Assembly: GCA_945862295.1 (NCBI GenBank)
Contig: CAMAXT010000005.1
Location: forward strand, 1-64,000
Direction: 5' to 3'
DNA from: Pseudobacteriovorax antillogorgiicola
GTDB taxonomy: Bacteria > Bdellovibrionota_B > Oligoflexia > Oligoflexales > CAIYRB01
DNA: 64,000 nt
Shown piece by piece: positions 20,225 to 54,360 of this stretch. Under the pieces are notes generated by a model that did not search any database, was not told where the DNA came from, and worked only from the letters and a program-made list of their open reading frames with translations. The translations under genes were made by a program, and so were the position numbers. Each line of letters starts with the position of its first letter. Position 1 is the stretch's first letter.

Positions 20225-21249
20225 AAGAACCAATTTTAAAAGTCCGCGACCTCGCGGTTGAATTTGCCACCTACGGGGGGCACGTGAAAGCAGTGCGCGG
20301 AGTAAGTTTCGACGTATTTCCTGGTGAAATTCTCTCGATCGTTGGCGAATCAGGCTGCGGAAAATCAGTAACACTACAAACGTTAATGGGCCTTATTCCC
20401 TGTCCTCCTGGACGTGTGACTTCAGGATCTGCTTTCTTGGGAGACCGAGATCTCCTAAAGATGTCTAGACAAGAGATGGAATCTGTTCGTGGAAAAGAAC
20501 TTGGAATGATCTTTCAGGATCCATTGACCTCTCTGAATCCAACAATGTCGGTTGGTGCACAGATTTCCGAAGTTATTATTAAACACGAGAATTTAAGCCA
20601 TAAAGCTGCATTTAAAAAAACCGTTGATCTAATGAAGCTGGTGCAAATCCCGGAAGCAGAAAAGCGCTGGGGACAGTTTCCGCACGAGTTCTCAGGCGGC
20701 ATGCGCCAGCGAATCATGATTGCGATAGCTTTGGCATGCCGACCAAAGATTCTCATCGCCGATGAACCAACAACAGCTTTAGACGTAACCATTCAAGGCC
20801 AGATTCTTGAGCTTCTTAAGCAGCTGCAATCCGAAATCAATATGTCTGTGATTTTAATTACGCACGATCTCGGTGTTGTGGCATCGGTTTCTGATCGAGT
20901 CGCTGTGATGTATGCAGGGCAGATCGTAGAATCCGGCTCTGTAAAAGAGATTTTTGGATCGCCAGCCCACCCTTATACAGCGGGATTAAAGTCAGCAATT
21001 CCTAATCCTCTGAAAACCCACCAGACAGTACTAGAATCAATTCCTGGAAGCCCTCCAGATCTGTTTTCTCCTCCGACCGGATGTGCGTTTGCAGTGCGCT
21101 GCAAGTCTGCAATGAAAGTTTGCTTGCAGAGCGATCCGCCTCCGATGAGCTTGGATAAAACATCGTTACGCGCAGACCGTTTTTCGAAGTGCTGGCTCCA
21201 TCATCAATATGCGCCGTTAGCATTGAAGGAGAAGGCTCTACATGCGTAA
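20221..21249 (+). CDS. oppD: Oligopeptide ABC transporter ATP-binding protein OppD
   Basis: GESGCGKSVTLQTLMGL, FSGGMRQRIMIAIALACRPKILIADEPTTALDVT, Cys-rich oligo_HPY C-terminus. Confidence 0.94.
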   Translation: MKEPILKVRDLAVEFATYGGHVKAVRGVSFDVFPGEILSIVGESGCGKSVTLQTLMGLIPCPPGRVTSGSAFLGDRDLLKMSRQEMESVRGKELGMIFQDPLTSLNPTMSVGAQISEVIIKHENLSHKAAFKKTVDLMKLVQIPEAEKRWGQFPHEFSGGMRQRIMIAIALACRPKILIADEPTTALDVTIQGQILELLKQLQSEINMSVILITHDLGVVASVSDRVAVMYAGQIVESGSVKEIFGSPAHPYTAGLKSAIPNPLKTHQTVLESIPGSPPDLFSPPTGCAFAVRCKSAMKVCLQSDPPPMSLDKTSLRADRFSKCWLHHQYAPLALKEKALHA

Positions 21250-22213
21250 CAAACCGATAGTTAAAGTACAAAACCTAACGAAGAAATTTCGCTTGGGACG
21301 AAAAGTTTTTTTACATGCGGTTGATGATCTCAGTTTTGAGATCAACGAAACCGAAATCTTGGGTCTTGTTGGGGAAAGCGGTTGTGGAAAATCCACACTT
21401 GGACGCTTAATCATCAAGCTTCACGAGCCAACATCCGGCAAGATCGACTTCAATGGCACCGATGTGTCGCACAAATTATCAATGGCTGAGCGCCGTAAGT
21501 TTAGTCGGGATGTTCAGCTTATATTTCAAGACCCATACAGTTCACTTAACCCGAGGATGACTGTCAAAGACATCATTGCGGAAGGTCCGGACTCGTGCGG
21601 TTTGTGGAAGAGTGAAGAGCGCGAGAAAAAAGTCGCATTCTGGCTTGAAAGAGTCGGTCTGCATGCAAGTCACGCTAGCCGTTATCCGCACGAATTTTCA
21701 GGTGGTCAGCGGCAAAGAATCGGCATCGCCCGCGCGCTAGCACTCGAACCTAGACTTGTTATCTGCGATGAACCAATTTCGGCATTGGACGTTTCAGTTC
21801 AAGCTCAGATCGTAAATCTTCTGAAAGAACTTCAGAGGGAGCGTGATCTCACCTATTTGTTTATTGCTCACGATTTAAGTATGGTGCGTATAATCTGCGA
21901 TCGCATGGCAGTTATGTACTTAGGAAAGATCGTCGAACTTGGAACATCTGCCCAGGTTTACGATAACCCTCAGCATCCTTATACCAAAGCATTAGTCAGC
22001 TCGAATCCGATACCGGACCCTGAGTTTGAGCAAAAACGAACCAGGTCACTCATTCAGGGAGAAATCGGTTCGCCGGTTAACCCAAAACCAGGATGTCGAT
22101 TCGCGCCGCGTTGTCCGCATGTAATGGACATATGTCGAACAACAGATCCAGTCGATACCAAGACCGAAGCTGGACAAGTTGTTGCTTGTCACCTTTTTTC
22201 TCAAAAAAAATAA
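21242..22213 (+). CDS. oppF: Oligopeptide ABC transporter ATP-binding protein OppF
   Basis: GESGCGKSTLGRLI, FSGGQRQRIGIARALALEPRLVICDEPISALDVSVQ. Confidence 0.94.
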   Translation: MRNKPIVKVQNLTKKFRLGRKVFLHAVDDLSFEINETEILGLVGESGCGKSTLGRLIIKLHEPTSGKIDFNGTDVSHKLSMAERRKFSRDVQLIFQDPYSSLNPRMTVKDIIAEGPDSCGLWKSEEREKKVAFWLERVGLHASHASRYPHEFSGGQRQRIGIARALALEPRLVICDEPISALDVSVQAQIVNLLKELQRERDLTYLFIAHDLSMVRIICDRMAVMYLGKIVELGTSAQVYDNPQHPYTKALVSSNPIPDPEFEQKRTRSLIQGEIGSPVNPKPGCRFAPRCPHVMDICRTTDPVDTKTEAGQVVACHLFSQKK

Positions 22214-28461: not shown

Positions 28462-29229
28462 TTGATGAGTCCGGTAATGACAATAGCATGGCGAGATATT
28501 CGCTCTTATTTCGCATCACCGAAAGGTGCGGCAATATTCTTCTTTTTTCTTGGGTTTATGAGCCTATTCTTCTACCTATTTATAATGACCTATATGGAAT
28601 ATGCCCAGCGCGCAGCTTCAATGGGAGGTGAGGGCGTTTCCCTTGAGCAACTCATTAGGGCATTCTTTGACAACATTTATTTTATTTTGCTTTTGGTCGT
28701 ACCGGCAGTGACGATGTCGTCGTTCTCTGAAGAAAGACGAAACCAGACTCTGCGCTTACTGCAGACATCGCCCGTGACTGCGATGCAGATCGTAGCTGGA
28801 AAATTCATAGCAGCGGTTTCTGTCTTGGCGTTCGTTCTGGCCTGCTCGGCTGTTTACCCACTATTTATTAAAATGTATGGCAATCCTGACATTGGAGTCA
28901 TCTGGACAAGCTACCTCGGCGTCTTGCTTCTGATGTCGGCGCAAGTCGCATTTGGTTTATGGGTATCTTCAATGACTAATAACCAATTTCTTGCGTTCTT
29001 ATTCACGATGTTTGGACTCTTCCTGCTTTTAATCCTGAACTACTACGCACCGAATATGGCAAGTGGCGGCATTTGGGAAAGCGTTGTGAAATACATCGCT
29101 GCAAAAGAGCATTTGGACACGTTTTTTAAAGGTATTTTGACGGTAGCAGATGTGACGTACTTCATCTGCTTTGTGGCTGTGTTTTTGTTTTTTACAAATA
29201 TTGTTCTCGATTCGCAGAGATGGAGATAG
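28462..29229 (+). CDS. ABC-2 type permease (GldF-like)
   Basis: TIAWRDIRSYFASPKGAAIFFFFLGFMSLFFY; VPAVTMSSFSEERRNQTLRLLQTSPVTAMQIVAGKF. Confidence 0.9.
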   Translation: MMSPVMTIAWRDIRSYFASPKGAAIFFFFLGFMSLFFYLFIMTYMEYAQRAASMGGEGVSLEQLIRAFFDNIYFILLLVVPAVTMSSFSEERRNQTLRLLQTSPVTAMQIVAGKFIAAVSVLAFVLACSAVYPLFIKMYGNPDIGVIWTSYLGVLLLMSAQVAFGLWVSSMTNNQFLAFLFTMFGLFLLLILNYYAPNMASGGIWESVVKYIAAKEHLDTFFKGILTVADVTYFICFVAVFLFFTNIVLDSQRWR

Positions 29230-29233
29230 GTCT

Positions 29234-30865
29234 ATGAATTCCAGTCTTTTCTTTATTCCGTTTCTAGCGGCATTTGTCGCACTTGTAGGTACAGCAATTG
29301 GTGGCGGCTCTCAGGACAGTAAATGGGTGGGACACCTAGCATTGGGTATCGCGGCGTCCTTGATTGTCCTTTGGATTGCCTTAGACATTTCAAATTTCAA
29401 AAGATTTTTTAGTCGCAAAGGTGCCAAGTACGGTGCCGGTAGCGGTGTGGTTGTAATCTTGGGACTTGGAATCATTATCGGCCTAGCGGTACTGACATCT
29501 CGCCCCAGATTTAATAAAAGTTTAGACGTCACTCGCGATCAACTAAACACGCTATCAGAGCAATCGATCAAGGTCGCCGAAACGATTCGCGACACGAAAG
29601 CAACGATCAAGATCACAGCCTACTTTTCAGACGAGAACCTTGAGCAAACGTTTCGAGACCTGCTTTTTATGTTCGAAGCCCGAGGTTCTTCATTTACAGT
29701 TGAATATCTAAATCCTCAGAAAGAACCCACCAGAGCGATTGCGGACAAGATAACTGATCTGAATACTGTAATCGTTCGCCGTGAAAACCTTGAAACTCGT
29801 CTTAGTACCTTTAGTGAAGAGAAACTGACCAATGCTTTTGTAAATGTACTCAAAGATAAATCGAAGAAAGTTTACTTTACTAAAGGCCACGGTGAGGGTG
29901 CACTAAGAAGTGAGGAGGCGACTGGATTTAATTTTATCGTTCAGGAACTTGAAAATACCAAAATAGTCGTTGAAGACCTTTCGTTACTTGAAGCTGCGAA
30001 GGTTCCGGATGATGCCGATGCAGTGATTATTGCTGGGCCTAAGTATGATTTTAAAGAAGAAGAAACCCGTATCCTTGAAGACTTTTTAAAGCGTGGTGGT
30101 GCGGTCATGACTATGGTCAACGGCATCACGCCAGTTGAAACTCTTAACAAAATGCTTGAGAAGTTTGGTTTGGCATATAATAGCGACTTTTTAATTCTAG
30201 ATCCGGCTAGCCAACAAGCCCAGATGTACACGCAAAATTATACTATCGTGTCCGGATTTGATGAGTTTCATCCGATCTCACGCGACTTTGCCAGCCAGTC
30301 TCAGATTGCCCTGCCGATGCGAAGTGCGCGGACGATTCGCGAGATTACAGACAATCCGTTCCAGATGAAAATCACTCTTGCCGGTAAGACTTTTGAACAG
30401 CAAGTGCGGATCAAAGATGTGTTTGCGGCAGCTGATTTAACGGAAGTAAAAAGAGACCGCCTCGATGCAGGGGCCTTTCCCGTTATTGCTGTAGCTAGTG
30501 GAAAAATTCCTGGCCCTTCGACCGCCAATAACGAACAGAATCCCGACGATGTAAAAACCGATGCCACCTCTGATAATGCCGCAACAAAATCACCTGAAAC
30601 CCGTCTGATTGTTATGGGATCTGTGGAATTCGCCAACAATGCGAACATCACGTCTGCCGAGCAACGGGACATGTTTTTAAATATGACTAACTACTTACTT
30701 CAGGATGAGGACTTCATCTCTATCCGTCCGAAAGATATGTCGAAGACTGAGCTTGACATGAAGTCTCCCATTAGTCAGATCGTTTTCTTATTGATAGTGA
30801 TTGTCTATCCGTTGTTCTTCCTCGGCACAGGCACCCTTTACTGGTTGCGTAGGAGACGAGCATGA
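29234..30865 (+). CDS. Gldg family protein (GldG/ABC-type uncharacterised transport)
   Basis: RFNKSLDVTRDQLNTLSEQSIKVAETIRDTKATIKITAYFSDENLEQTFRDLL; start taken at internal ATG 29234. Confidence 0.88.
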   Translation: MNSSLFFIPFLAAFVALVGTAIGGGSQDSKWVGHLALGIAASLIVLWIALDISNFKRFFSRKGAKYGAGSGVVVILGLGIIIGLAVLTSRPRFNKSLDVTRDQLNTLSEQSIKVAETIRDTKATIKITAYFSDENLEQTFRDLLFMFEARGSSFTVEYLNPQKEPTRAIADKITDLNTVIVRRENLETRLSTFSEEKLTNAFVNVLKDKSKKVYFTKGHGEGALRSEEATGFNFIVQELENTKIVVEDLSLLEAAKVPDDADAVIIAGPKYDFKEEETRILEDFLKRGGAVMTMVNGITPVETLNKMLEKFGLAYNSDFLILDPASQQAQMYTQNYTIVSGFDEFHPISRDFASQSQIALPMRSARTIREITDNPFQMKITLAGKTFEQQVRIKDVFAAADLTEVKRDRLDAGAFPVIAVASGKIPGPSTANNEQNPDDVKTDATSDNAATKSPETRLIVMGSVEFANNANITSAEQRDMFLNMTNYLLQDEDFISIRPKDMSKTELDMKSPISQIVFLLIVIVYPLFFLGTGTLYWLRRRRA

Positions 30866-32265
30866 AAAACATTAAACTTATAGTGATTCTTACGGTCCTG
30901 CTTTTCGGCTTGGGTGGAATCGCAACCTGGGACGAATGGAAAACAAAGGAAGAAGAAAAAGAAACTAAGGGTAAAAACAAGCTGACTTTGATCACGCCTG
31001 ATCAAGTCACTGAGTTTGTCTACACTGCAAAACCCGAGGAAGTCGCTGCGGCAACCGATGGTGACATTCTTGAAATTAAATTGGCAAAGGTTGATGGTGT
31101 TTGGATGATAAACCATCCGATCGCACTCGCTGCCGATAGTCCTGCTGTAGAAAATTTGCTGAAGTCTGTTTCTGATTACAACTACACATCGGTAGTTTCA
31201 ACTGACAAAGCGACCTGGAAGAATTTTGGTTTAGAAAATTCGAGTGTAAAAATTAGATTGAAGACCCTTGATGGCGCAGAAACGACACTGTTTTTCGGCA
31301 GTAAAGCTCCTGTCGGCTACAATTCTTATCTAGCAACTTCAGCTTCAGATGATGTGCTGATGGGTAGTCAGCATATTGCTATTGCCGTGACTAAGACACT
31401 GCATGATCTTCGTAGCAAGGCGATGGTCAAAATTGATGAATCTCAAATTAAGTCTTTGGAATACAATTCCCTGAGCGGTACGGACGTTTCGCTGGTTAAA
31501 GACGGCAACTCTTATAAATTTGCTGCTGGCGGAGCGGAGCCGGACGTAGCCTACATTCGTGATTTTATCGATGACCTCAATTTCGTCAAAGCTGATAAGT
31601 TTATTGATAACCCCGATCCGGCGCTTGCTGAGAAATTTTCCAACCCGGAGATTTTAGTTCGACTGACCTTTGAAGGCAAACCAGATCTAAATCTTTCGTT
31701 TTTAAGCAGTGCTGACAAGATGTATGCCCGCATAGGTATGGGACCATCATTGATAGAACTCCCCGCAGAGTTTTCTAAAAACATTTTGAAAACCAATAAT
31801 GACTTTCGTAACCGACGAATTGTGCCTAGTGCCTTTATGTCAACTCTCTCAGGCGTCACAATCGATGGCGTTTTCTATAAAAAAATCACCGGAAGTTGGT
31901 TCACCGGTGACGAGATCGCGAAAGCAGAAGGCCCCGATGGCTCGACCAAGGCAAAAGAGTCCTCACATGTCCGGCCGTTTGTTGTAGACCTGGAGTTTGC
32001 TAAAACCGAAGACTTTTACCGGGCCGATCAGCCTGACTTCGTAAAATCACTTCTCGCCGCTCCTGTACATAGTGTTATTCTGGAGAGCGCTGCTGGGGAT
32101 CCAAAGAAAATTACTGTCGATCTCTACAAACATGAGTTAATCGACGACAAGTACTGGGTGAAAGTTTCTGGTGGCCCGTCAGGCTTCCTCGTTGCGAAAT
32201 CGCACTTTGAAAGCATTACACCTTCCGCAAAACCAGCGGAATTGCCAGTTGGACCTGAAGGCTGA
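30862..32265 (+). CDS. DUF4340 domain-containing protein
   Basis: N-terminal TM then repeated beta-rich segments; follows GldG by ATGA overlap as is usual for this family. Confidence 0.82.
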   Translation: MKNIKLIVILTVLLFGLGGIATWDEWKTKEEEKETKGKNKLTLITPDQVTEFVYTAKPEEVAAATDGDILEIKLAKVDGVWMINHPIALAADSPAVENLLKSVSDYNYTSVVSTDKATWKNFGLENSSVKIRLKTLDGAETTLFFGSKAPVGYNSYLATSASDDVLMGSQHIAIAVTKTLHDLRSKAMVKIDESQIKSLEYNSLSGTDVSLVKDGNSYKFAAGGAEPDVAYIRDFIDDLNFVKADKFIDNPDPALAEKFSNPEILVRLTFEGKPDLNLSFLSSADKMYARIGMGPSLIELPAEFSKNILKTNNDFRNRRIVPSAFMSTLSGVTIDGVFYKKITGSWFTGDEIAKAEGPDGSTKAKESSHVRPFVVDLEFAKTEDFYRADQPDFVKSLLAAPVHSVILESAAGDPKKITVDLYKHELIDDKYWVKVSGGPSGFLVAKSHFESITPSAKPAELPVGPEG

Positions 32266-43914: not shown

Positions 43915-44699
43915 GTGTAAATTTAAAAAAACACTTGGCAGAAGTTGAAGCTGTGGTGCGAAATACTGCGCCACAGCGCAACAAATTAAACCCCGCATCT
44001 TATATTGGTGGTGGGGTTTCTTCCTATCAGTATGCTGCACCGAGCGTACCGCAGGTTAGATCGATATATAAAAATACGCCGTTCTCTTTTTGTGATAAGA
44101 CTCCTGCTGCAAAAATTCAAGAGATCAAAACCTGGGATTACATCTGGCAACAATCGCAAATTTACGAAGTCGCCAGCCTTTCGCTTATACACATGAGCGA
44201 TGGTGTAAAAAAAGGCGAACTCCTAGCTCAGCACCTCCCGATGTTAAAGAAGTGGGCTCTGCGGATAGATAACTGGGCGCACAGCGATGGGTTGTCTTCA
44301 ATCTATACCCGGATTTTAGAATCTGATCGCAAGGCAATGCTGCCAATTTTAGAAGACTGGAGTGACTCTAACAATCCATGGCTGAGGCGGCAGTCTATTG
44401 TCAGCCTGCTCTATTATTCTTCTGCACGCAAAGATGTCCTGTCATTTGTGAAGTTAATTAGCCTTGTTAAAAAGCAGCTGCATCACGAAGACTACTACGT
44501 TCAAAAGGGGGTTGGCTGGACATTGCGAGAGATTGGTAATGTCTATCCAGATGAGGTGTTTGCGTTTTTAGAAGCAAATATAGGGGCTGTTAGTGCCGGG
44601 GCTTTCTCCGCGGCTACCGAAAAACTTTCTCCAGCGCAAAAAACCCACATTAAGAAATTGCGAGCGCTAGCTAAAGGAGAAACCCTTGGACGCCGTTGA
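43911..44699 (+). CDS. DNA alkylation repair protein (AlkD-like HEAT repeats)
   Basis: YEVASLSLIHM, IDNWAHSDGLSSIYTRIL, NPWLRRQSIVSLLYY, LHHEDYYVQKGVGWTLREIGNVYPDEVFAFLE. Confidence 0.82.
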   Translation: MSVNLKKHLAEVEAVVRNTAPQRNKLNPASYIGGGVSSYQYAAPSVPQVRSIYKNTPFSFCDKTPAAKIQEIKTWDYIWQQSQIYEVASLSLIHMSDGVKKGELLAQHLPMLKKWALRIDNWAHSDGLSSIYTRILESDRKAMLPILEDWSDSNNPWLRRQSIVSLLYYSSARKDVLSFVKLISLVKKQLHHEDYYVQKGVGWTLREIGNVYPDEVFAFLEANIGAVSAGAFSAATEKLSPAQKTHIKKLRALAKGETLGRR

Positions 44700-45711
44700 G
44701 CTCTGCGCAAGTGTTTCTGGTCGTAAAAGACATACAGGGCGTTGGCTCACAGTTGTATCATTCAGCGTCATTGTTTCTGGGCTCGCAGGTGGCGTTGCCT
44801 ACACGGCTGGGCACACGGGTAGCGAACTAGGTTTCGCTGTTCTGACACTTTTGGGCTTGATGACAGTATACCTAGCTTTCTTGTTCACATCATTCGCCAA
44901 TGACCTATGGCTTTTTTGTCATCGTAGGGAATTGCGGCACCTGCTTCCAATTTTATTTGTAATTTTTGCTTATATTCTATTCGGCGTAGGAACAGGGACA
45001 TTTACTTGGCAGTCATTCGGAACGATCGGCGCCTTTGTTACGTTGCCAACTCTCTTTGCCGTGACTTGGCAAAGAGACTCAACGCCGCAGTGGTTCGATT
45101 GGCTGGCTGTTGCGTGCATTTGGCTTCCGTTTGATCTTGGTCTTCTTAAAAATGTATGGCTTTGGCCTCAGGGCAACGGTGCTTACATACTCAATACAGC
45201 TGTCGCGGTGTCTTTAGCGATATATCTATTCTCGTCGGTTCGTCGCATCGCTGATATCGGTTTTCGTTTGCGGTGGAAAAGATCGGATTTTAAAACGACC
45301 GCGATCATTTTCGGACTTTTTTGCATCATCGCCATACCATTTGGCGTCGCGAGTGACTTCATAAGTTTCAATGTAAAACCAGATGTCGTTAAAGGGCTAT
45401 TAGCACCGATTGGGATTTTTCTGTTTATAGCTTACCCGGAAGAACTTCTTTTTCGTGGGCTGTTGCAAAATTTTCTAACTAAAAAATTCGGAAGTGAAAA
45501 AATCGCTTTAGTTGTCGCTGCAGTATTCTTTGGTGCAACTCATCTCAACAATGGACTCCAACCCGATTGGCGTTACTTCGTATTAGCGACCATCGCTGGA
45601 TTTTTTTACGGCGCCGCTTATATAAAGACGAAAAATCTTTTCGTTCCGGCCGTCATCCACGCACTAGTAGATTCGGTTTGGATTCAATTTTTGATGAAAA
45701 CCCCGTCCTAG
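44686..45711 (+). CDS. CPBP family intramembrane metalloprotease
   Basis: AYPEELLFRGLLQNFLTKKFG, FGATHLNNG, PAVIHALVDSVW; multiple TM helices. Confidence 0.87.
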   Translation: MDAVELCASVSGRKRHTGRWLTVVSFSVIVSGLAGGVAYTAGHTGSELGFAVLTLLGLMTVYLAFLFTSFANDLWLFCHRRELRHLLPILFVIFAYILFGVGTGTFTWQSFGTIGAFVTLPTLFAVTWQRDSTPQWFDWLAVACIWLPFDLGLLKNVWLWPQGNGAYILNTAVAVSLAIYLFSSVRRIADIGFRLRWKRSDFKTTAIIFGLFCIIAIPFGVASDFISFNVKPDVVKGLLAPIGIFLFIAYPEELLFRGLLQNFLTKKFGSEKIALVVAAVFFGATHLNNGLQPDWRYFVLATIAGFFYGAAYIKTKNLFVPAVIHALVDSVWIQFLMKTPS

Positions 45712-45968: not shown

Positions 45969-48900
45969 ATGAGAAAGCAATTTGAACCTGCTATCGAAGA
46001 TCTAAAAACTGACACAACTTCTGCGTCACCTCGCCTCTTCGATGAACTCGGGCACGACGATTTTTTTGGGGACGAACAAATTGATCGCGAGATTCAACTT
46101 CAGCTTCGTTCTGCAGAGCAGCAGTCAAATGAAAAGAAAGCTATCGACCGCTTTCTCTACGAAATTCTGAAGATCGAACAAGATCTTGTTCAGCAGTTAA
46201 AAAAGAAGATCTTCGACCAAGAAAATTCGCAAGCTTCTAAGCGCCTCGAAGACCGTATGCGCGCTGAAGAGCTTGCTTCACAGAACCGTATTCGAGAGAA
46301 GCTTTCGAAAGAGAAAATGGAATCTGAAAAGCGTATACAGCGCCAGATTCAATTAGAACAACTTCGCCTCCAAAACCGCTTTATCGAGAAGAAGAACGAG
46401 GAGGAGGCAACTCTTAAAGTTCGTAAAACCGAATTGTTAAAGAATGAGCAGACTGCGATTTCTTCATTGCGCTCTGACCTACAGATTAAAATGGAAACCG
46501 AATCCGCAGCAAGATTGAAAGAAGCTCTTGCGACAGAAAAGAAACTGGCGGATGAACGTCTCGAAGATCTCAAGAACAACGAATTTGCTCTTGTGCGCAA
46601 AAAAATCGCAGAGATGCGCAAACGAGAAGAGTCAGTCGTTGCCGAGACAATTGCTAATTACGAAAACCAAGCAAAAACTCAACTCGATGGCATGCTAAAG
46701 GCAGCCTTTGAAAAAGAGGAAGAGCTTTCAAAAGCTCGCATCGACGAAGCTTCAACCAATCATAAGCAAAAATTCGCAAGTGATATCGAGCGTTCCAAGA
46801 GGGTTGTATCTGTCGAAGCGGAAAAGATTAGAGCGAAGTTGCAAGAGAGTGAAAATCAGCGTCTTGTCAGAACCATTGCTGAACTTGAAAAAAATGCAGC
46901 AGCTGAAATCGAGACTCTACGAGCTTCGATGCTGGCAGATGAAGAGAAACAATCGTTGATTCGTATCCAAACTCGTATTCATGACGAAGCGAAAAATGTT
47001 GAATTGAGGTTGAAGCTTCGTTTTGAAGAAGAGAAAAAGACAAGCGACCGTCGTCGAAGCCAGCAGATCGCAATTGAAGTGACTGAATCAGAACACCGTG
47101 CGCAAAAACAACAGATATTAGAAGAAGCCGCTGCGGCAGCGCGTCTCCAATCCGACCTCAAACTGGAAAAAAATCAGTCATCAGAACGCATTGAAGCTGC
47201 GAAAATGATGGAGCTGGATGCCGCCCGTCAGCGTATAGTTGAGCAAAAAGCGGCCGAAGCTTCAGCGAAGACGCAGCGGATCGCCAGCAATGAAATTAAA
47301 GAACACAAGCATATTGAAGAGTTTTGCGAAGCACTAGCTGAGCGCGAAAAAATCGAAATTAATTGCCGCTTAGAGGAAAATCTTCGCGCAGAGCAATTAG
47401 ACTCTCAGTCACGAATTAAGACCGCAAAAGAACAATTCGGCATCGCAGCAGCAAAAAAATTAGCTTCCGAGTTTGAAAAAGAAGCTCAGCAATCGAAAGT
47501 TCGGGTTCAACGGGCGATGGTAAGTGAAGACACTTACATTAGTGACTATGAATCGAAACTAATTGCTGATGAAGCAAAAGCACGTGACCTCCGTATTGCC
47601 GAGTCATTGGCAAAAGAGGAACAAGATTCCAAGAATAGAGCTCAGATCCGCTGGAGTGAAGAGAACAGAAAAGCAACAGCGCGAGTCGAGCAATGCCTTG
47701 TTACCGAAGCTAAAGAAAGTGATCACCGAATCAGCGCTCGCGTAATTAAAGAAGATATCGATGCCCAAGAGCGCATTGATACGAGAATAGATCGTGAGAA
47801 AAGCGATGCCAGCGCCCGCTTTTCAGTTATGATGCGTAAGGAATCGGAAGAAGCCGAAATTCGTGTCCGTCAACGCCTAGCAATGGAAGCCGCCGAAGCG
47901 GAACAACGCCGCGTTATACTATGTCAGAACGAAGAAGAACTCGCGAAAAAACGAGTGGTCTTGGCACTTGAGATTGAAGAATCCGAAGCGAAAGAGCGCT
48001 TATCTCGCATGTATTCAAAGGAGCGCATGGAAGCCGAGAAGCGTCTTGCTAGTCGCCTTGAATCTGAGGAATCCGATGCTCGGGTCCGTGTTTCAAGAAG
48101 ACTCAATGATGAGATGGCGGAAGCTGAGAAACGCTCAGAACTGCATGTAGCGAAGGAAGAGCTGGAATCACAGCAGCGAGTTCGCAACCTGATGGAAAAA
48201 GAGCAAGCGTCAGCCAATAAGTGGCGAGAACAAGCCTTGGCCAAGGAAACTGTTGAAGCTGGCATCCGTCAAGAGAAGCGTTTGAAGGAAGAAAAAGAAT
48301 CTAGCGACCGTCGTGCAGGGGCTCTTTTAGAAGAAGAAAAGACTACTGGCCGCGACCGCTTGAAGACATCTCTAGTAGAAGAAGATCAAGCATCAGCTCG
48401 TCGCGTTGCTCAGCGTATGGAAGCCGAGCAGCATGAACACGAACTTCGCATTGCTCAGTATCTTGCTGAAGAGTCAGAAGTTTCAGAACAGCGCCTCGCA
48501 GCTGTACTCGAACGAGAAGACATTGAATCTAAAAAGCGAATACGTCAATTGGTGGAACAAGAAGAACGAGAACATGTTTTACGTACTGAGCGTCAAATTG
48601 CCCGTGAAGAGCGAGAAAGCCGAGCTCGCCTCGAGTCATCGATAACCAAAGAACGCAAAGACTCTGAAACTCGCATCAAAGAGTATCTTGCGAAAGACGA
48701 TTTGGAAGCGAAACGCCGTCATACTGAAAATCTCACCAAGGAAGCGGATGAAATGAAACGCTTCAAAGCTGAAGTCGTTGTCAAAGAAGAAACAACCTAT
48801 CAAAGACGCCTAGCTTCGCGTTTGGAATTTGAACGCTCTGCCTCGCGCACTCGCGTCGAACAAGCAATTGCAAGTGAAGAGCTTGAGAGCCAAAAGCGAA

Positions 48901-49688
48901 TCGAAGCCGCTTCTTATGCGATTGATGAAGAAGGCCGCTTCTTAGAAGACGAGCTAAAAACCGCAGAAGCTCTCGATGCTGAAAAACGGCAGATGTCTAG
49001 ACTTCAAGAGGAGCAAAAGTTAATCCGTAAACTCGAAGATAAGCGGCATGATTTACGCGATCGCCGGGAGCTCGAGAAACGCCGCTTCCATGCCGAGCTA
49101 GTAGCGAGAGAGAACGAGGTGTTTATTGCAGGCTGTGCCCGTAAAGAGCAAGACATGGTCCACGAAGAGTCTAGAAGAGACCGTGAGATGATCGATCAAT
49201 TGGCAGCAGAGTGTGAAACACTCCTTGCTCGTGTGGTTGATAATTTTGGTTTGAATATGCCAGTCGCAGGCCTTTTAGTTGCAAGAGATATGCGCGTCCA
49301 AAGTCCAAGCCGTAGGCAAGTAGTCACCCAAGCCAGAAACGAAGGTCTCGATCCAACCGTCGAATTCCAGTCTGTGGAAGACGAGTGCTTTAAGATCCTC
49401 AACGCGATGCCGAAAAAAGTTATTGGCCGCGAGCTAGGTCGCAAGACTCCTCATGAAGCCATGGCTCTTTTCCGCGAGTGCAGCGAGCGCGTTCGTTCCC
49501 ATCTCTTGGATAGTCTCGGCGAACCAATGAGAAGCGTGTTTTCGCAGATGATTAGCGTTTCTTCACCGCAAGACCAAACAGATGTCTTAACAGTCATCGA
49601 CACCGCTTCGTCCGAGAAGCTTGAAGAATTCGTCAACGATTTGCGCTACCAAGCTCAGATTAGCTTTAGTAATCCCGAGAAACTGTAA
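45969..49688 (+). CDS. Giant coiled-coil protein with 63 x 15-residue repeats and unrecognised C-terminal domain
   Basis: 1239-aa ORF; residues 41-985 split exactly into 63 units of 15 residues with pattern xxxAxxR(I/L/V)xxxLxxE. Confidence 0.93.
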   Translation: MRKQFEPAIEDLKTDTTSASPRLFDELGHDDFFGDEQIDREIQLQLRSAEQQSNEKKAIDRFLYEILKIEQDLVQQLKKKIFDQENSQASKRLEDRMRAEELASQNRIREKLSKEKMESEKRIQRQIQLEQLRLQNRFIEKKNEEEATLKVRKTELLKNEQTAISSLRSDLQIKMETESAARLKEALATEKKLADERLEDLKNNEFALVRKKIAEMRKREESVVAETIANYENQAKTQLDGMLKAAFEKEEELSKARIDEASTNHKQKFASDIERSKRVVSVEAEKIRAKLQESENQRLVRTIAELEKNAAAEIETLRASMLADEEKQSLIRIQTRIHDEAKNVELRLKLRFEEEKKTSDRRRSQQIAIEVTESEHRAQKQQILEEAAAAARLQSDLKLEKNQSSERIEAAKMMELDAARQRIVEQKAAEASAKTQRIASNEIKEHKHIEEFCEALAEREKIEINCRLEENLRAEQLDSQSRIKTAKEQFGIAAAKKLASEFEKEAQQSKVRVQRAMVSEDTYISDYESKLIADEAKARDLRIAESLAKEEQDSKNRAQIRWSEENRKATARVEQCLVTEAKESDHRISARVIKEDIDAQERIDTRIDREKSDASARFSVMMRKESEEAEIRVRQRLAMEAAEAEQRRVILCQNEEELAKKRVVLALEIEESEAKERLSRMYSKERMEAEKRLASRLESEESDARVRVSRRLNDEMAEAEKRSELHVAKEELESQQRVRNLMEKEQASANKWREQALAKETVEAGIRQEKRLKEEKESSDRRAGALLEEEKTTGRDRLKTSLVEEDQASARRVAQRMEAEQHEHELRIAQYLAEESEVSEQRLAAVLEREDIESKKRIRQLVEQEEREHVLRTERQIAREERESRARLESSITKERKDSETRIKEYLAKDDLEAKRRHTENLTKEADEMKRFKAEVVVKEETTYQRRLASRLEFERSASRTRVEQAIASEELESQKRIEAASYAIDEEGRFLEDELKTAEALDAEKRQMSRLQEEQKLIRKLEDKRHDLRDRRELEKRRFHAELVARENEVFIAGCARKEQDMVHEESRRDREMIDQLAAECETLLARVVDNFGLNMPVAGLLVARDMRVQSPSRRQVVTQARNEGLDPTVEFQSVEDECFKILNAMPKKVIGRELGRKTPHEAMALFRECSERVRSHLLDSLGEPMRSVFSQMISVSSPQDQTDVLTVIDTASSEKLEEFVNDLRYQAQISFSNPEKL
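46089..48923 (+). repeat. 63 tandem 45-bp coding repeats (15-aa units, diverged)
   Basis: Hand segmentation, no indels; Arg at unit position 7 in about 48/63 and Glu at position 15 in about 55/63. Confidence 0.9.
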
Positions 49689-49738: not shown

Positions 49739-50701
49739 TTAAACTGTCATCTGATCGATAACGTCTTTCACGTTATCGATTTTCTTTATTTCCCCAACAC
49801 TTTTCCCAGCCTGATAGAATTCCTTGTAATCACTTCCTTGACTCAACGATTTCTTGAGTTGCCAGACTGATTTTAGGCTGTAAAACGTCCGCATCCAGTG
49901 CTTTGTGCGGTTGTTTTTAAGTAGATATCTCGTCAGTGGGCCAGCCTTTGTCCCTACAGATTTAATATAAGGTGTGTTAATGACCGAAACAGGCACACCC
50001 GTTATTTTTTCAGACAAAACGATGTCTTCCGGCTGAGCCTTTAGAATCGCTTGTTTGTAGTCCGCATGCGCTGAACACTCTGTGGTAGCAATCATCCTAG
50101 TTCCAAGCTGAACGCCATCATAGCCCATAGCAAGAGCAGCTTTGTACGCAATTGGGCCTCCAATTCCTCCAGCACAGATCATCGGTAAATTGAACTTTTT
50201 GAGCGAGCTATAAAGCTCTTGTGGAGATATCCGACCGGCATGCCCACCTGCAGTGTTATTGACACAAATCAAGCCATGAACACCGCTATCGATAGCTTTT
50301 TTCGCATACTTTTCTTCAGTCACGTCATGAAACACAGTTCCACCAGCTTGCGCGACCCGGTCAGTAACCCACCTAGGATTGCCTAATGCTGTAATAAAAA
50401 ACCTAACACCTTCTTCTAACGCCACATCCAACCATTCCTGGTTGCGTTTTAGGTATGTTTTTGACGAACCTTCGATCAACAGATTGAGGCCGATCGGTTT
50501 TTTCGTCAGCATTCGGATGTGTTTTAAACCGTCGCGAAAATTATAACGGTTCACAAACACCAGTGAGACTGGTTGTACAATTCCGATTCCACCCGCTTCA
50601 GATACCGCTGCTACAAGATCTGGATTGCTACACGGGTACATTGCACCACCTATAATCGGGTTTTTGATACCAAGTAATTTGGTGAAAGAAGTAGGTGCCA
50701 T
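49739..50701 (-). CDS. Nitronate monooxygenase family protein (2-nitropropane dioxygenase-like)
   Basis: IKNPIIGGAMYPCSNPDLVAAVSEAGGIGIVQP, CVNNTAGGHAGR, PMICAGGIGGPIAYKAALAMGYDGVQLGTRMIATTEC. Confidence 0.9.
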   Translation of the reverse strand: MAPTSFTKLLGIKNPIIGGAMYPCSNPDLVAAVSEAGGIGIVQPVSLVFVNRYNFRDGLKHIRMLTKKPIGLNLLIEGSSKTYLKRNQEWLDVALEEGVRFFITALGNPRWVTDRVAQAGGTVFHDVTEEKYAKKAIDSGVHGLICVNNTAGGHAGRISPQELYSSLKKFNLPMICAGGIGGPIAYKAALAMGYDGVQLGTRMIATTECSAHADYKQAILKAQPEDIVLSEKITGVPVSVINTPYIKSVGTKAGPLTRYLLKNNRTKHWMRTFYSLKSVWQLKKSLSQGSDYKEFYQAGKSVGEIKKIDNVKDVIDQMTV

Positions 50702-51053: not shown

Positions 51054-53180
51054 ATGGCGAAAAAGAAAGCCGCTGCTAAGCAGCGTGCAAACAATGAGGG
51101 AAGTAGTAAACCGATGAAGAAAGGTTCAGCTAAAGCTAAAACCGAATCTAAAAAGCTTCCTCAGGTAGAACTCGATTCTGCAAAAGAAGTCATCGATAAT
51201 GTTCGCAAGTCAGCCAAGATGATTACCGCGAGCAGTACTGCCGAATATTTCGCGAAAAACCTTCAGCAAGTGGGCTTCTCATCGCCAACCAAGGCGGTTT
51301 TAACCACGTTAAAAGAAGCTTTTGACAACGCTTTAGATGCATGTGAAGACGCTAGCATTCTTCCAGATATCCACGTTGTCGTTGAAAAAATCGGCGTTGG
51401 AACGTTGAAAAATACCGACCAGATTCTTATCCGCGTTGAAGATAACGGTCCTGGTATCGATCCCGACGATGTTCCAAAAGTATTCGGTGAATACCTAGCA
51501 AGTTCGAAATTCGGACGAGCACGTTGCTCGCGCGGACAGCAGGGTATTGGTATTTCTGCCGCAACTACCTGGGCAATGCAGACAACGGCGTCTGGTGCAC
51601 GTGTTGTGACTAAGAAAAAGACTGCCCGCAAAGCATTTAGCTGCATTGTCGACATGGATCTCAAGCACAACCGTGGAATCGTCAAAAACAAAGAGAACAT
51701 CGACTGGAAAAAAGAGCACGGCACGAACGTTGAATTTAAAATGGACGGCCGCGTTCAGTTAAACGGTGAAGGTGGTCTGTTGAACTACCTCCGCAGTACC
51801 ATTCTCGTTAATCCGCATATGTCTATTACCTACACCTTGCCTGAAATGCAGAAGACAAGAGTAGAACGAGTTACTTCAGAAGTTCCTTTGATTCCTGAAG
51901 CAACTGAGCCTCATCCTCATACGATGATTTTAGGTGAGTTTTTAGCCCACGCTCGTCTTTTCGGTCATATCAAAGCTTCAACTTGGTTGAAAAAAGGCTT
52001 TTCACGCGTCTCCGATAAAACGCTCCAAGAGCTAGTCAGTTTGCATAAGCTGCCGCCTGCGATTTTGAATCAAGCAGTCGATACAATGTCTGAATCCGAC
52101 ATCAAAACTCTCTACAGCGCTATTCAAAAGTCTGCTCTGCAGGCACCTTCAACGAGTTCAGTACTCGCTATTGGTGAAGACGGGCTGGCGTTGAGTATCC
52201 AGCGCCTTGGTGATATCGACTTTTTTTCTGTCGTATCTCGTAAACCGATGATCGCGGACTTTAAACCAGTTCAGGTCGAAGTCGCTATCGCTCGTCAAAG
52301 AGGAGTGACTGGCGAAGATAAAGAAGAATCTGTACAGGTTCTTCGTTTCGCCAATAGGGTGCCGTTGCAGTTTGATAAAGCTGCGTGCGCGATAGTAAAA
52401 GCAATCACGTCGATCAATTGGAAGCCTTATGGTCTTAGACAGCCTAAGAATTCCTTACCAATCGGCCCTTACATCATCGCGATAAGTGTGGTTTCGCCGT
52501 TTATAAAATTCAAGAATGCATCAAAAGAAACAGTTGATGGTTCTGACGAGCTAGTTGAAGAATTTCGCCGCACCCTGATGCAGGCCGGTCAGCGCCTTTC
52601 TCGTTACCTCAAGCGCGAGCACAAAGCCGATGAGCTAGAACAACGGCAACAACATATCGAGCAATTTTGCCCAATCTTGGTCGAAACTCTCGCGCGCATT
52701 GTAAACGCACCAGAAAACCGCAAGGTAAAAGCTGAAGAAGGCCTAGCTAAGATTCTGGCGCGAGATACCAAAGGTATTCGCCAAGATTTGAATGTCGCTG
52801 ATCAAAGGCTCGCCTCCTATCTTCAAGATAATAAGAAGCATCTTTCTGGATTCTTTGCGGATATCGAAAGCGAAGAAGCTGCTGCTCATTCAGAGCGTGA
52901 CTTGGAAGACGGCGAAGTAGACGAAGATGTTGATTCCGATTCAGAAGATTCTGAAAAGGGTTCAGAAAAGTCTGCGAAAAAATCCAAGGGCAAAGCTTCT
53001 AAAGTCAAAGCTTCTAAAGGCAAAAAAGCAAAAGAGAAGAATTTCAAAAAAGCAGAGAAACCCGCAGCTAAAAAAGAAGCTATGCAAGAACCGAAAGCTA
53101 GTACGAAGAAATCCGAAGCTCCGAAAAAAGCACCGACTAAGACACCACCAGCGAAGAAAACTAAGCCAAAGGCTAAGTAA
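51054..53180 (+). CDS. top6B: DNA topoisomerase VI subunit B
   Basis: GHKL ATPase TTLKEAFDNALDACEDA, RVEDNGPGID, FGEYLASSKFGRARCSRGQQGIGISAA; transducer RFANRVPLQFDKAACAIVKAITSINWKPYGL; Lys-rich tail. Confidence 0.95.
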   Translation: MAKKKAAAKQRANNEGSSKPMKKGSAKAKTESKKLPQVELDSAKEVIDNVRKSAKMITASSTAEYFAKNLQQVGFSSPTKAVLTTLKEAFDNALDACEDASILPDIHVVVEKIGVGTLKNTDQILIRVEDNGPGIDPDDVPKVFGEYLASSKFGRARCSRGQQGIGISAATTWAMQTTASGARVVTKKKTARKAFSCIVDMDLKHNRGIVKNKENIDWKKEHGTNVEFKMDGRVQLNGEGGLLNYLRSTILVNPHMSITYTLPEMQKTRVERVTSEVPLIPEATEPHPHTMILGEFLAHARLFGHIKASTWLKKGFSRVSDKTLQELVSLHKLPPAILNQAVDTMSESDIKTLYSAIQKSALQAPSTSSVLAIGEDGLALSIQRLGDIDFFSVVSRKPMIADFKPVQVEVAIARQRGVTGEDKEESVQVLRFANRVPLQFDKAACAIVKAITSINWKPYGLRQPKNSLPIGPYIIAISVVSPFIKFKNASKETVDGSDELVEEFRRTLMQAGQRLSRYLKREHKADELEQRQQHIEQFCPILVETLARIVNAPENRKVKAEEGLAKILARDTKGIRQDLNVADQRLASYLQDNKKHLSGFFADIESEEAAAHSERDLEDGEVDEDVDSDSEDSEKGSEKSAKKSKGKASKVKASKGKKAKEKNFKKAEKPAAKKEAMQEPKASTKKSEAPKKAPTKTPPAKKTKPKAK

Positions 53181-53190
53181 AAGGAACTAA

Positions 53191-54360
53191 ATGGCACGCG
53201 TAGAAGGTAAGCGGATAGCTAAAAAAGACACCGAGATCATCTCCCTAGGTAAGGACCTGTGCGAGAAGATGCTAGGCGAGCTAGAGCGGGCACAGCGGCC
53301 TATTCTTCGTGCGACAAAGTGTGCACTAGATAACTCTATATATAATGCAAAAATCGGCTTTTTGACCCCCGGGGACAAGAAGGTCTCTTCTGAATTGAAC
53401 GTGAGTTCAGTCAAAAAGATGACTCGTGCGATATTCATGTTAGAGATTCTACTTAGAAACGTCGAAATTTCTAACATCAACACGAAGCGTGAACTTTATT
53501 ACGTCGTTAAAGGTTATGTTAAGCACGAAGCCAAACTTCGTCCTCTCGATTTTACCGATCAGTCTGAGTCCGACTCAGTCATCGATTTTATCTGCGAGAT
53601 GATGGAAGCTTATCGCGAAGAACTAAACTGCGTAGCAGATGACCGAGGGGGTCAGACTTATTCCAAAAACTTAATCGTGACGGAGAAGGAGTTCGACGGC
53701 AACGAAGCGGTTGTTGACCTGTCTCTATTGGGTACCGCGCCTTACCAGCCACGTAACAGACCGCAGAATCTGGTTCTACAAGCTAAAAAGAAAATCGACT
53801 TCTGCATCATTATCGAGTCACAAGGTACAGCGAACACCCTTGTTGCCAATGGTTTCACTAAACGTCACAACTGTATTTTGATAGGTAGCCAAGGTGTTCC
53901 TTCGAACGCTGTACGTGCTTGGGTTAAAAGAATTCAAGATCAGTTATCTGTTCCTCTCTTTTTCTTTGGTGACCTCGACGCCTATACGATGCAAAACATT
54001 TTCCGCACGTTGAAGGCGGGATCGGCTGCATCACTTATCAGAAACTCCGAGTTCTGTGCTCCTGATGTTAAGTTCTTGGGCGTTCTTCCAGAAGACATCA
54101 AGAAATACGACCTGGTCGATTACGCCGTTAAAGAAAACGATCCTGCCGAAGCTCGGTCTCTCAAAAAAGCAAGAGACGCCCTTTCAAATGATCCATTCTT
54201 TAAAGACAAGAAGAACAAAGAGCTGACAGGTATTTTAGACTGGTTGGTTAAAAACAAGCGACGATGCGAACAGCAGTCCTTTATCTCAGTAGATCCTCGT
54301 GACCCGCAAATGATGGAAAAAATCATCATCGATAAAATTAAACGCGGTAACTACATTTAA
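53191..54360 (+). CDS. top6A: DNA topoisomerase VI subunit A (Spo11/Top6A)
   Basis: Catalytic-Tyr motif NTKRELYYVV, DFTDQSESDSVIDFICEMMEAYREELNCVAD, Toprim IIIESQGTANTLVANGF and FFFGDLDAYTMQNI. Confidence 0.96.
   Translation: MARVEGKRIAKKDTEIISLGKDLCEKMLGELERAQRPILRATKCALDNSIYNAKIGFLTPGDKKVSSELNVSSVKKMTRAIFMLEILLRNVEISNINTKRELYYVVKGYVKHEAKLRPLDFTDQSESDSVIDFICEMMEAYREELNCVADDRGGQTYSKNLIVTEKEFDGNEAVVDLSLLGTAPYQPRNRPQNLVLQAKKKIDFCIIIESQGTANTLVANGFTKRHNCILIGSQGVPSNAVRAWVKRIQDQLSVPLFFFGDLDAYTMQNIFRTLKAGSAASLIRNSEFCAPDVKFLGVLPEDIKKYDLVDYAVKENDPAEARSLKKARDALSNDPFFKDKKNKELTGILDWLVKNKRRCEQQSFISVDPRDPQMMEKIIIDKIKRGNYI

What the first reader, a model, noticed from the sequence alone, without database searches (positions are those of the whole stretch)
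45969..49688. 1239-aa protein with 63 uninterrupted 15-residue (pentadecad) coiled-coil repeats
Seen directly: residues 41-985 divide into exactly 63 units of 15 with no insertion or deletion (40 + 63x15 + 254 = 1239). Examples: RMEAEKRLASRLESE / ESDARVRVSRRLNDE / ELESQQRVRNLMEKE / DIESKKRIRQLVEQE. Consensus is x-x-x-(A/S)-x-x-R-(I/L/V)-x-x-x-L-x-x-E. Canonical left-handed coiled coils use 7-residue periodicity; a 15/4 period (3.75 residues per turn) predicts a straight or slightly right-handed coil. As one continuous helix it would be about 140 nm long (0.15 nm per residue). Strict register over 945 residues suggests selection on length, as in a ruler, scaffold or filament. I do not recognise a described family. 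Role is unknown.
Basis: partly seen in the sequence, partly recalled or inferred. Interest (0 to 1): 0.85.

Follow-up and report, generated by a model that had tools for sequence, protein, structure and literature searches.

The report
Giant fifteen-residue-repeat coiled-coil rod
A lake bacterium (probably an uncultured member of the Oligoflexales) carries a gene for a very long, stiff rod-like protein built almost wholly from one 15-residue repeat, of a kind so far described only in short stretches, and its relatives keep the repeat frame perfectly while changing length only by whole repeats, which points to a new type of internal cell scaffold.

Summary
Window 45969-49688 (+) encodes a 1239-aa protein. 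Residues 41-985 are 63 units of 15 with no indel, and the phase persists weakly to about residue 1093. Best-fit periodicity is 3.752 residues per turn; periods of 7, 3.5 and 11 are absent. Orthologs exist in four same-family genomes. Anchor to anchor the rod is 58.0 units here and 33.0 units in three relatives, a difference of exactly 25 whole units. Between two relatives 67% identical in DNA, 672 rod residues align without an indel, while the disordered flanks carry seven. The rod (dN/dS 0.08) and the C-terminal domain (0.03) are under purifying selection. No Pfam, NCBIfam, PHROGs, PADLOC or PDB sequence match reaches threshold. In 65 genomes of the class it occurs only in this family.

Best reading: a cytoplasmic, homo-oligomeric, right-handed pentadecad coiled coil about 140-155 nm long, with an acidic head, a conserved Glu/Arg layer every 2.2 nm, and a small helical-repeat adaptor domain at the C-terminus. 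It probably works as a scaffold or intermediate-filament-like element. Filament formation, oligomer state and partner are inferred, not shown. The C-terminal domain resembles FliG/MgtE_N folds only weakly. New variant of a known kind.

The parts
45969..49688 (+). Whole gene, 1239-aa pentadecad rod protein; monocistronic as far as can be seen
   Evidence: SD-like GGAG 12 nt upstream; convergent with the 49739-50701 (-) nitronate monooxygenase gene
45969..46088 (+). N-terminal non-coil tail, residues 1-40 (11 of 40 acidic); orthologs have a longer acidic, indel-rich tail here
46089..48923 (+). Rod core: residues 41-985, 63 uninterrupted 15-residue units, consensus x-x-(E/A)-(A/S)-x-x-R-(I/L/V)-x-x-x-(L/I)-x-x-E
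48924..49247 (+). Rod continuation, residues 986-1093: helix, weak in-phase repeats, conserved RLQEEQKLI.E..R..L..RRE motif shared with orthologs
49248..49370 (+). Low-confidence linker, residues about 1094-1134 (disordered and indel-rich in orthologs)
49371..49685 (+). C-terminal domain, residues about 1135-1239: short paired helices (alpha-solenoid-like), slowest-evolving part of the orthologs

Best explanation
A cytoplasmic structural rod. [quoted passage not shown] In the 96-degree wheel, positions 4 (Ala/Ser), 8 (Ile/Leu/Val) and 12 (Leu/Ile) form the apolar core. Glu at 15 sits in the middle of the same face and is flanked by the conserved Arg at 7, so each 2.2-nm repeat is expected to carry one Glu-Arg polar layer that locks the register. 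The rod carries an acidic tail at one end and, after a flexible linker, a small helical-repeat adaptor domain at the other. Most likely it acts as an intermediate-filament-like scaffold or cable: rods associate laterally with staggers set by the 15-residue charge period, and the adaptor docks them to another cell component. SHOWN: repeat, register, whole-unit length change, purifying selection, domain layout, absence of signal-peptide-like or transmembrane segments by hydropathy, lineage restriction. INFERRED: oligomerisation, parallel orientation, the salt-bridge layer, filament formation, docking, cell role.
For: Best hydropathy periodicity is 3.752 residues/turn in all four proteins. Phase is constant along every rod and confirmed by cross-trained profiles. 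E+K+R is about 40% with an apolar stripe at positions 4/8/12, as for a coiled coil rather than a lone helix. Anchor distance 870 against 495 residues = 58 and 33 units. Zero indels in 672 rod residues against seven in the flanks. dN/dS: rod 0.082, C-domain 0.031, tail and linker about 0.28. AlphaFold gives helix 35-1091 with low-confidence interruptions, then short paired helices. Hydrophobic self-overlap is best at staggers of 15n, while charge complementarity between rods is best about half a repeat off, in three orthologs: in-register chains with half-repeat lateral stagger would be compatible. Maximum 19-residue hydropathy is 1.2. Functional precedent for coiled-coil-rich bacterial proteins forming filaments: crescentin (PMC10873595, abstract), FilP (PMC6599971), H. 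pylori Ccrp59/Ccrp1143 (PMC2776988).
Against: No expression, oligomer or imaging data. AlphaFold was run only as a monomer with three sequences and its confidence is modest (mean pLDDT 62-63). Synteny differs between genera and no partner gene co-travels, so no pathway supports a cell-structure role. Two near-complete genomes of the same genus lack it, so it is dispensable in the lineage. Conserved Glu on the core face is unusual and could mean that the core is only 4/8/12 and the coil is weak.
Confidence: 0.5

Rival explanations
1. A discrete spacer or molecular ruler: one rod holds an N-terminal partner and the C-terminal domain at a fixed distance (about 150 nm here, about 90 nm in the sister genus) without forming filaments.
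For: Conserved C-terminal domain on a flexible linker; rod length constant (33 units) in three species of one genus over saturated synonymous divergence; no partner is needed for a tether to be monocistronic.
Against: Length differs by 25 units between genera; constancy within the genus may simply reflect rarity of whole-unit duplications, since all other indels break register; no partner identified.
Confidence: 0.3
2. A single, non-oligomeric charged alpha helix (SAH/ER-K type) acting as a lever or spacer.
For: Charged composition, no proline, AlphaFold predicts a lone helix.
Against: E+K+R only about 40% (single-alpha-helix domains are generally far more charged: own knowledge) and a clear apolar stripe with 61-70% ILVMF at positions 8 and 12; register constraint over the whole rod is not needed for a lone helix.
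Confidence: 0.08
3. A motor- or membrane-linked arm: the C-terminal domain is a divergent FliG/MgtE_N-type helical superhelix that docks to a flagellar-like or MotA/MotB-type machine of which this lineage has several.
For: Best Foldseek matches of the model include FliG in the C ring (8wiw, E 0.048), MgtE N-domain (2yvy, 8gps) and FliG 1lkv; MgtE_N at E 0.026, below cut-off; the same genomes carry several membrane proteins with FliG_C domains, some next to MotA/MotB-like genes.
Against: No FliG_C match even at lax thresholds; hhalign against the genomes' own FliG and FliG_C proteins gives probability below 1%; TM-scores about 0.2 on a low-confidence model; Pumilio repeats match about equally by sequence.
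Confidence: 0.08
4. A surface fibre (trimeric-autotransporter-like stalk) or a phage tape measure.
For: Pentadecad-like right-handed segments are known in YadA-type stalks (PMC4786415); tape measures are long and helical.
Against: No YadA-anchor or other Pfam hit, no N-terminal hydrophobic segment, no PHROGs hit, no phage, plasmid or viral-contig relative; neighbours are housekeeping genes.
Confidence: 0.04

Closest known systems
VASP tetramerisation domain (Ena/VASP)
   Different: A short tetramerisation domain at the end of a eukaryotic actin regulator; here 63-70 units make up most of a bacterial protein; no sequence match
DivIVA/FilP/Scy family of Gram-positive bacteria
   Same: Very long non-heptad coiled-coil rods (Scy over 1000 residues), cytoplasmic, structural (PMC9858780)
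   Different: Their rods are hendecads with an N-terminal DivIVA motif; here 11-residue power is absent and no DivIVA domain is found
Crescentin and H. pylori Ccrp proteins (IF-like, coiled-coil-rich proteins)
   Same: Coiled-coil-rich cytoplasmic proteins of Gram-negative bacteria that form filaments (PMC10873595, PMC2776988)
   Different: Heptad-based; no sequence similarity detected; filament formation untested here
Trimeric autotransporter adhesin stalks (YadA)
   Same: Contain strongly right-handed segments (YadA locally 3.8 residues/turn; PMC4786415)
   Different: Exported, with a membrane anchor; short non-heptad segments
FliG / MgtE_N helical superhelix domains
   Same: C-terminal domain is predicted as short paired helices and weakly matches these folds
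   Different: No significant sequence or profile match; function not transferable

Membership tests
Pentadecad (15/4) coiled coil as a structural class | 15-residue sequence period with 3.75 residues per turn | tested here: met
   best fit 3.752 in four orthologs
Pentadecad (15/4) coiled coil as a structural class | Apolar core at four positions per repeat spaced 3-4-4-4 | tested here: inconclusive
   Three apolar positions 4, 8, 12 (spacing 4-4); the fourth (15 or 1) is Glu/charged
Pentadecad (15/4) coiled coil as a structural class | Oligomeric, right-handed supercoil in a structure | not testable with these tools
   Needs a structure; only monomer prediction was available
Crescentin / IF-like proteins | Heptad-based segmented rod | tested here: not met
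   Power at 7 and 3.5 is 0.3 and 0.2
Crescentin / IF-like proteins | Self-assembly into filaments without cofactor | not testable with these tools
   Biochemical test needed
DivIVA/FilP/Scy | N-terminal DivIVA-like motif and hendecad rod | tested here: not met
   No Pfam hit up to E 5; power at 11 is 1.2
Trimeric autotransporter adhesins | Signal peptide and YadA membrane anchor | tested here: not met
   No Pfam hit; maximum 19-residue hydropathy 1.2, near residue 1086 and not at the N-terminus
FliG_C / MgtE_N domain families (C-terminal domain only) | Profile match above curated cut-off | tested here: not met
   MgtE_N 15.5 bits against cut-off 25.9; no FliG_C listed; hhalign probability under 1%
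FliG_C / MgtE_N domain families (C-terminal domain only) | Helical superhelix fold | tested here: inconclusive
   Foldseek E 0.048 at best, TM about 0.2, model pLDDT about 60-68 in the domain
Single alpha helix (SAH) | Overwhelmingly charged, no apolar stripe | tested here: not met
   E+K+R about 40%, apolar stripe at 4/8/12
Phage tape measure protein | Relatives in phages or phage gene neighbourhood | tested here: not met

The most novel reading that the evidence does not exclude
The longest natural uninterrupted right-handed coiled coil so far noticed, and the founding member of a lineage-specific class of bacterial cytoskeletal filaments whose length evolves only in 15-residue quanta, with a Glu-Arg layer every 2.2 nm as register lock.
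Probability: 0.3. Interest if true: 0.78.

Novelty: new variant of a known kind. Interest (0 to 1): 0.58.

Why it matters
Natural pentadecad coiled coils found in the held literature are short (VASP, segments of adhesin stalks) and coiled-coil tools model non-canonical periodicities poorly (PMC11676326). A rod of 63-70 clean units with orthologs of different unit number is a natural test case for how right-handed supercoils are encoded, how register is enforced by a buried charged layer, and how structural rods change length in evolution. If it forms filaments it adds a class of cytoskeletal protein in a lineage (the Oligoflexales, if the placement is right) whose cultured member Oligoflexus shows variable cell shape with unknown control factors (PMC5154148), although that species' family appears to lack this gene.

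Tried and rejected
Direct homolog scan with the single protein in genome contigs found nothing; an alignment found only the same lake MAGs. Viral contigs, plasmids and phages: none. Idea that the C-terminal domain is a true FliG_C torque domain: eyeball similarity was tempting, but profile comparison and hmmscan do not support it. Idea that the large FliG_C-positive ORFs in the same genomes are further rods: rejected on reading; they are other, membrane-anchored proteins. A weak C-domain hit in G016 is an unrelated HNH-like ORF. Shared operon partner: none; neighbours differ between genera. Absence in G004/G005 as an assembly gap: the enoyl-CoA hydratase that follows the rod gene in relatives is present there with other genes beside it, so the rod gene is missing from that locus. 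AlphaFold breaks every roughly 250 residues are low-confidence and probably a modelling artefact. The antisense and out-of-frame ORFs inside the gene are composition artefacts.

Full report
OBSERVATION. The ORF at 45969-49688 (+) is intact, 1239 aa. Cutting residues 41-985 in fifteens gives 63 units without an indel; R occupies unit position 7 in 48 and E position 15 in 55 of 63. Fourier analysis of hydropathy gives strong peaks at divisors of 15 (34 at 15/7, 24 at 3.75, 23 at 5, 15 at 7.5) against a maximum of 8.6 over the tested periods in 200 shuffles; periods 7, 3.5, 11, 11/3 and 3.6 carry no power. Because units 1-34 look less regular, I trained a repeat profile on units 35-63 only, and another on orthologs only; both pick the same phase in every third of the first half, and the extension 986-1093 is weakly in phase as well. 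There is no proline in 993 residues and only six glycines.

RELATIVES. The window lies in contig C5 of a 3.05-Mb, 78% complete MAG, with no close paralog in its own genome. Four of six other genomes of the same family have an ortholog: G001 (836 aa), G002 (883 aa), G003 (875 aa) and a contig-edge fragment in G006. G003 and G002 are named lake MAGs, LacPavin_0920_SED3_MAG_51_70 and Loclat_bin-10810. Profile searches of the 48 genomes held for the order and the 65 of the class find it nowhere else. The phylum search, limited to genomes at least 85% complete, returned no genome outside this class. Genome sizes of 7.3-7.4 Mb in one family of the order (Oligoflexus has 7.57 Mb, PMC5154148) and 28-33% GC in the sister order, as I know it from Silvanigrellaceae, suggest order Oligoflexales, class Oligoflexia; this placement is inference.

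LENGTH CHANGES BY WHOLE UNITS. Homologous anchors near both ends of the rod lie 870 residues apart here and 495 in G001, G002 and G003: 58.0 and 33.0 units. The phase is constant along each ortholog. Between G003 and G001 (67% nucleotide identity in the rod, synonymous sites saturated) one gap-free block of 672 residues covers the rod, whereas the N-terminal tail and the linker hold seven indels. G003 against G002 gives dN/dS 0.082 for the rod, 0.031 for the C-terminal domain and about 0.28 for tail and linker. So the register is under strong selection. Length is fixed within one genus but not between genera, which weakens a universal ruler.

ANATOMY. N-terminal acidic tail; rod; linker; C-terminal domain of about 90 residues, the most conserved part. 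The best angular step is 95.95 degrees, i.e. 3.752 residues per turn, in all four proteins. On that wheel the apolar positions 8 (61% ILVMF), 12 (70%) and 4 (74% A/S/G/C) cluster; Glu15 (91% of 123 units) lies in the same face and Arg7 (85%) on its flank. I infer one Glu-Arg layer per 2.2 nm that fixes chain register. Self-overlap of hydrophobic residues is best at staggers of 15n; charge complementarity is best about half a repeat off. This is what one would expect if chains in a coil are in register and neighbouring coils pack half a repeat out of step, but it is a calculation on sequence only. By the published definition pentadecads have a, d, h and l apolar and a right-handed supercoil as strong as the left-handed one of heptads (PMC9858780; PMC4786415).

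STRUCTURE PREDICTION. AlphaFold of residues 1004-1239 (three sequences) gives a helix to about 1093, a linker and six or more short helices, pLDDT about 60-68 in the domain. Residues 1-1194 come out as helix from 35 to 1091 with low-confidence interruptions. Pfam gives MgtE_N at E 0.026, below its cut-off. Profile comparison with the genomes' own FliG (A6), MotE-like (A3) and FliG_C membrane proteins (A4) gives probabilities under 1%. I therefore call the domain alpha-solenoid-like and do not assign it to FliG.

CONTEXT. Upstream are a CPBP-type protease (44686-45711) and a DNA-alkylation-repair-like gene, downstream a convergent nitronate monooxygenase gene, then topoisomerase VI B and A and mfd. 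In the sister genus the gene lies between a divergent pentapeptide-repeat gene and an enoyl-CoA hydratase gene. No partner is shared. G004 and G005 lack it: the hydratase gene is present with different genes beside it.

FUNCTION. No family in Pfam, NCBIfam, PHROGs or PADLOC and no PDB sequence matches at threshold. With no hydrophobic segment typical of a signal peptide or membrane anchor, a cytoplasmic place is most likely. Long coiled-coil-rich bacterial proteins of this general make-up form filaments and shape cells (crescentin, FilP, Ccrp59/1143), which makes a scaffold or filament the best bet (0.5), a discrete tether or ruler next (0.3). Neither is demonstrated.

NOVELTY. The repeat class (pentadecad) and the functional class (coiled-coil-rich structural proteins) are known. 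A rod of 63-70 clean pentadecad units, with whole-unit length evolution and a conserved Glu-Arg pair, was not found in the held literature. The library lacks most subscription papers, so 'longest' is not claimed as fact.

Noticed in passing
L053:4421-6709, L054:3164-4864, L055:1506-3557, L056:4202-6346, L057:2047-4521, L058:4425-6899, L059:3147-5381, L060:2561-5059, L061:4203-6707 (G000-G004, G006): All seven family genomes carry FliG proper; six of them (not G005) also carry large proteins (570-850 aa) with a signal-like N-terminus, a central hydrophobic segment and a C-terminal FliG_C (some FliG_M) domain. Some sit next to MotA/ExbB-like and MotB-like genes and a SpoIIE phosphatase gene (L056, L059; L054 has a MotA-like neighbour). 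They look like non-flagellar, membrane-anchored FliG-type rotors or adaptors with their own stators.
   Followed up: partly
window 51054-53180 (+) and 53191-54360 (+): Adjacent topoisomerase VI B and A genes in a bacterium, the B subunit with a long lysine-rich C-terminal tail.
   Followed up: no
L014:7676-8194, L012:7682-8173, L011:3594-4085, L013:846-1319: Divergently transcribed pentapeptide-repeat protein beside the rod gene in every sister-genus genome that has the rod; absent beside the rod in the window.
   Followed up: partly
G000:C15 near 20621-22153: A 663-aa open frame of the window's genome with several pentapeptide-repeat stretches matched by that neighbour protein.
   Followed up: no
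L027/L011 residues about 475-504 of the G003 protein (units RIIMHTLRERMIQAE / VEPSNNRAKIRAAAE): The only proline-containing, non-canonical unit pair inside the sister-genus rods, conserved in G001-G003: a candidate hinge.
   Followed up: no
window 29171-32265: GldG-like ABC-type protein gene (564 aa, NCBIfam TIGR03521, E 1e-17, below cut-off) followed by a 467-aa ORF without an NCBIfam match.
   Followed up: no
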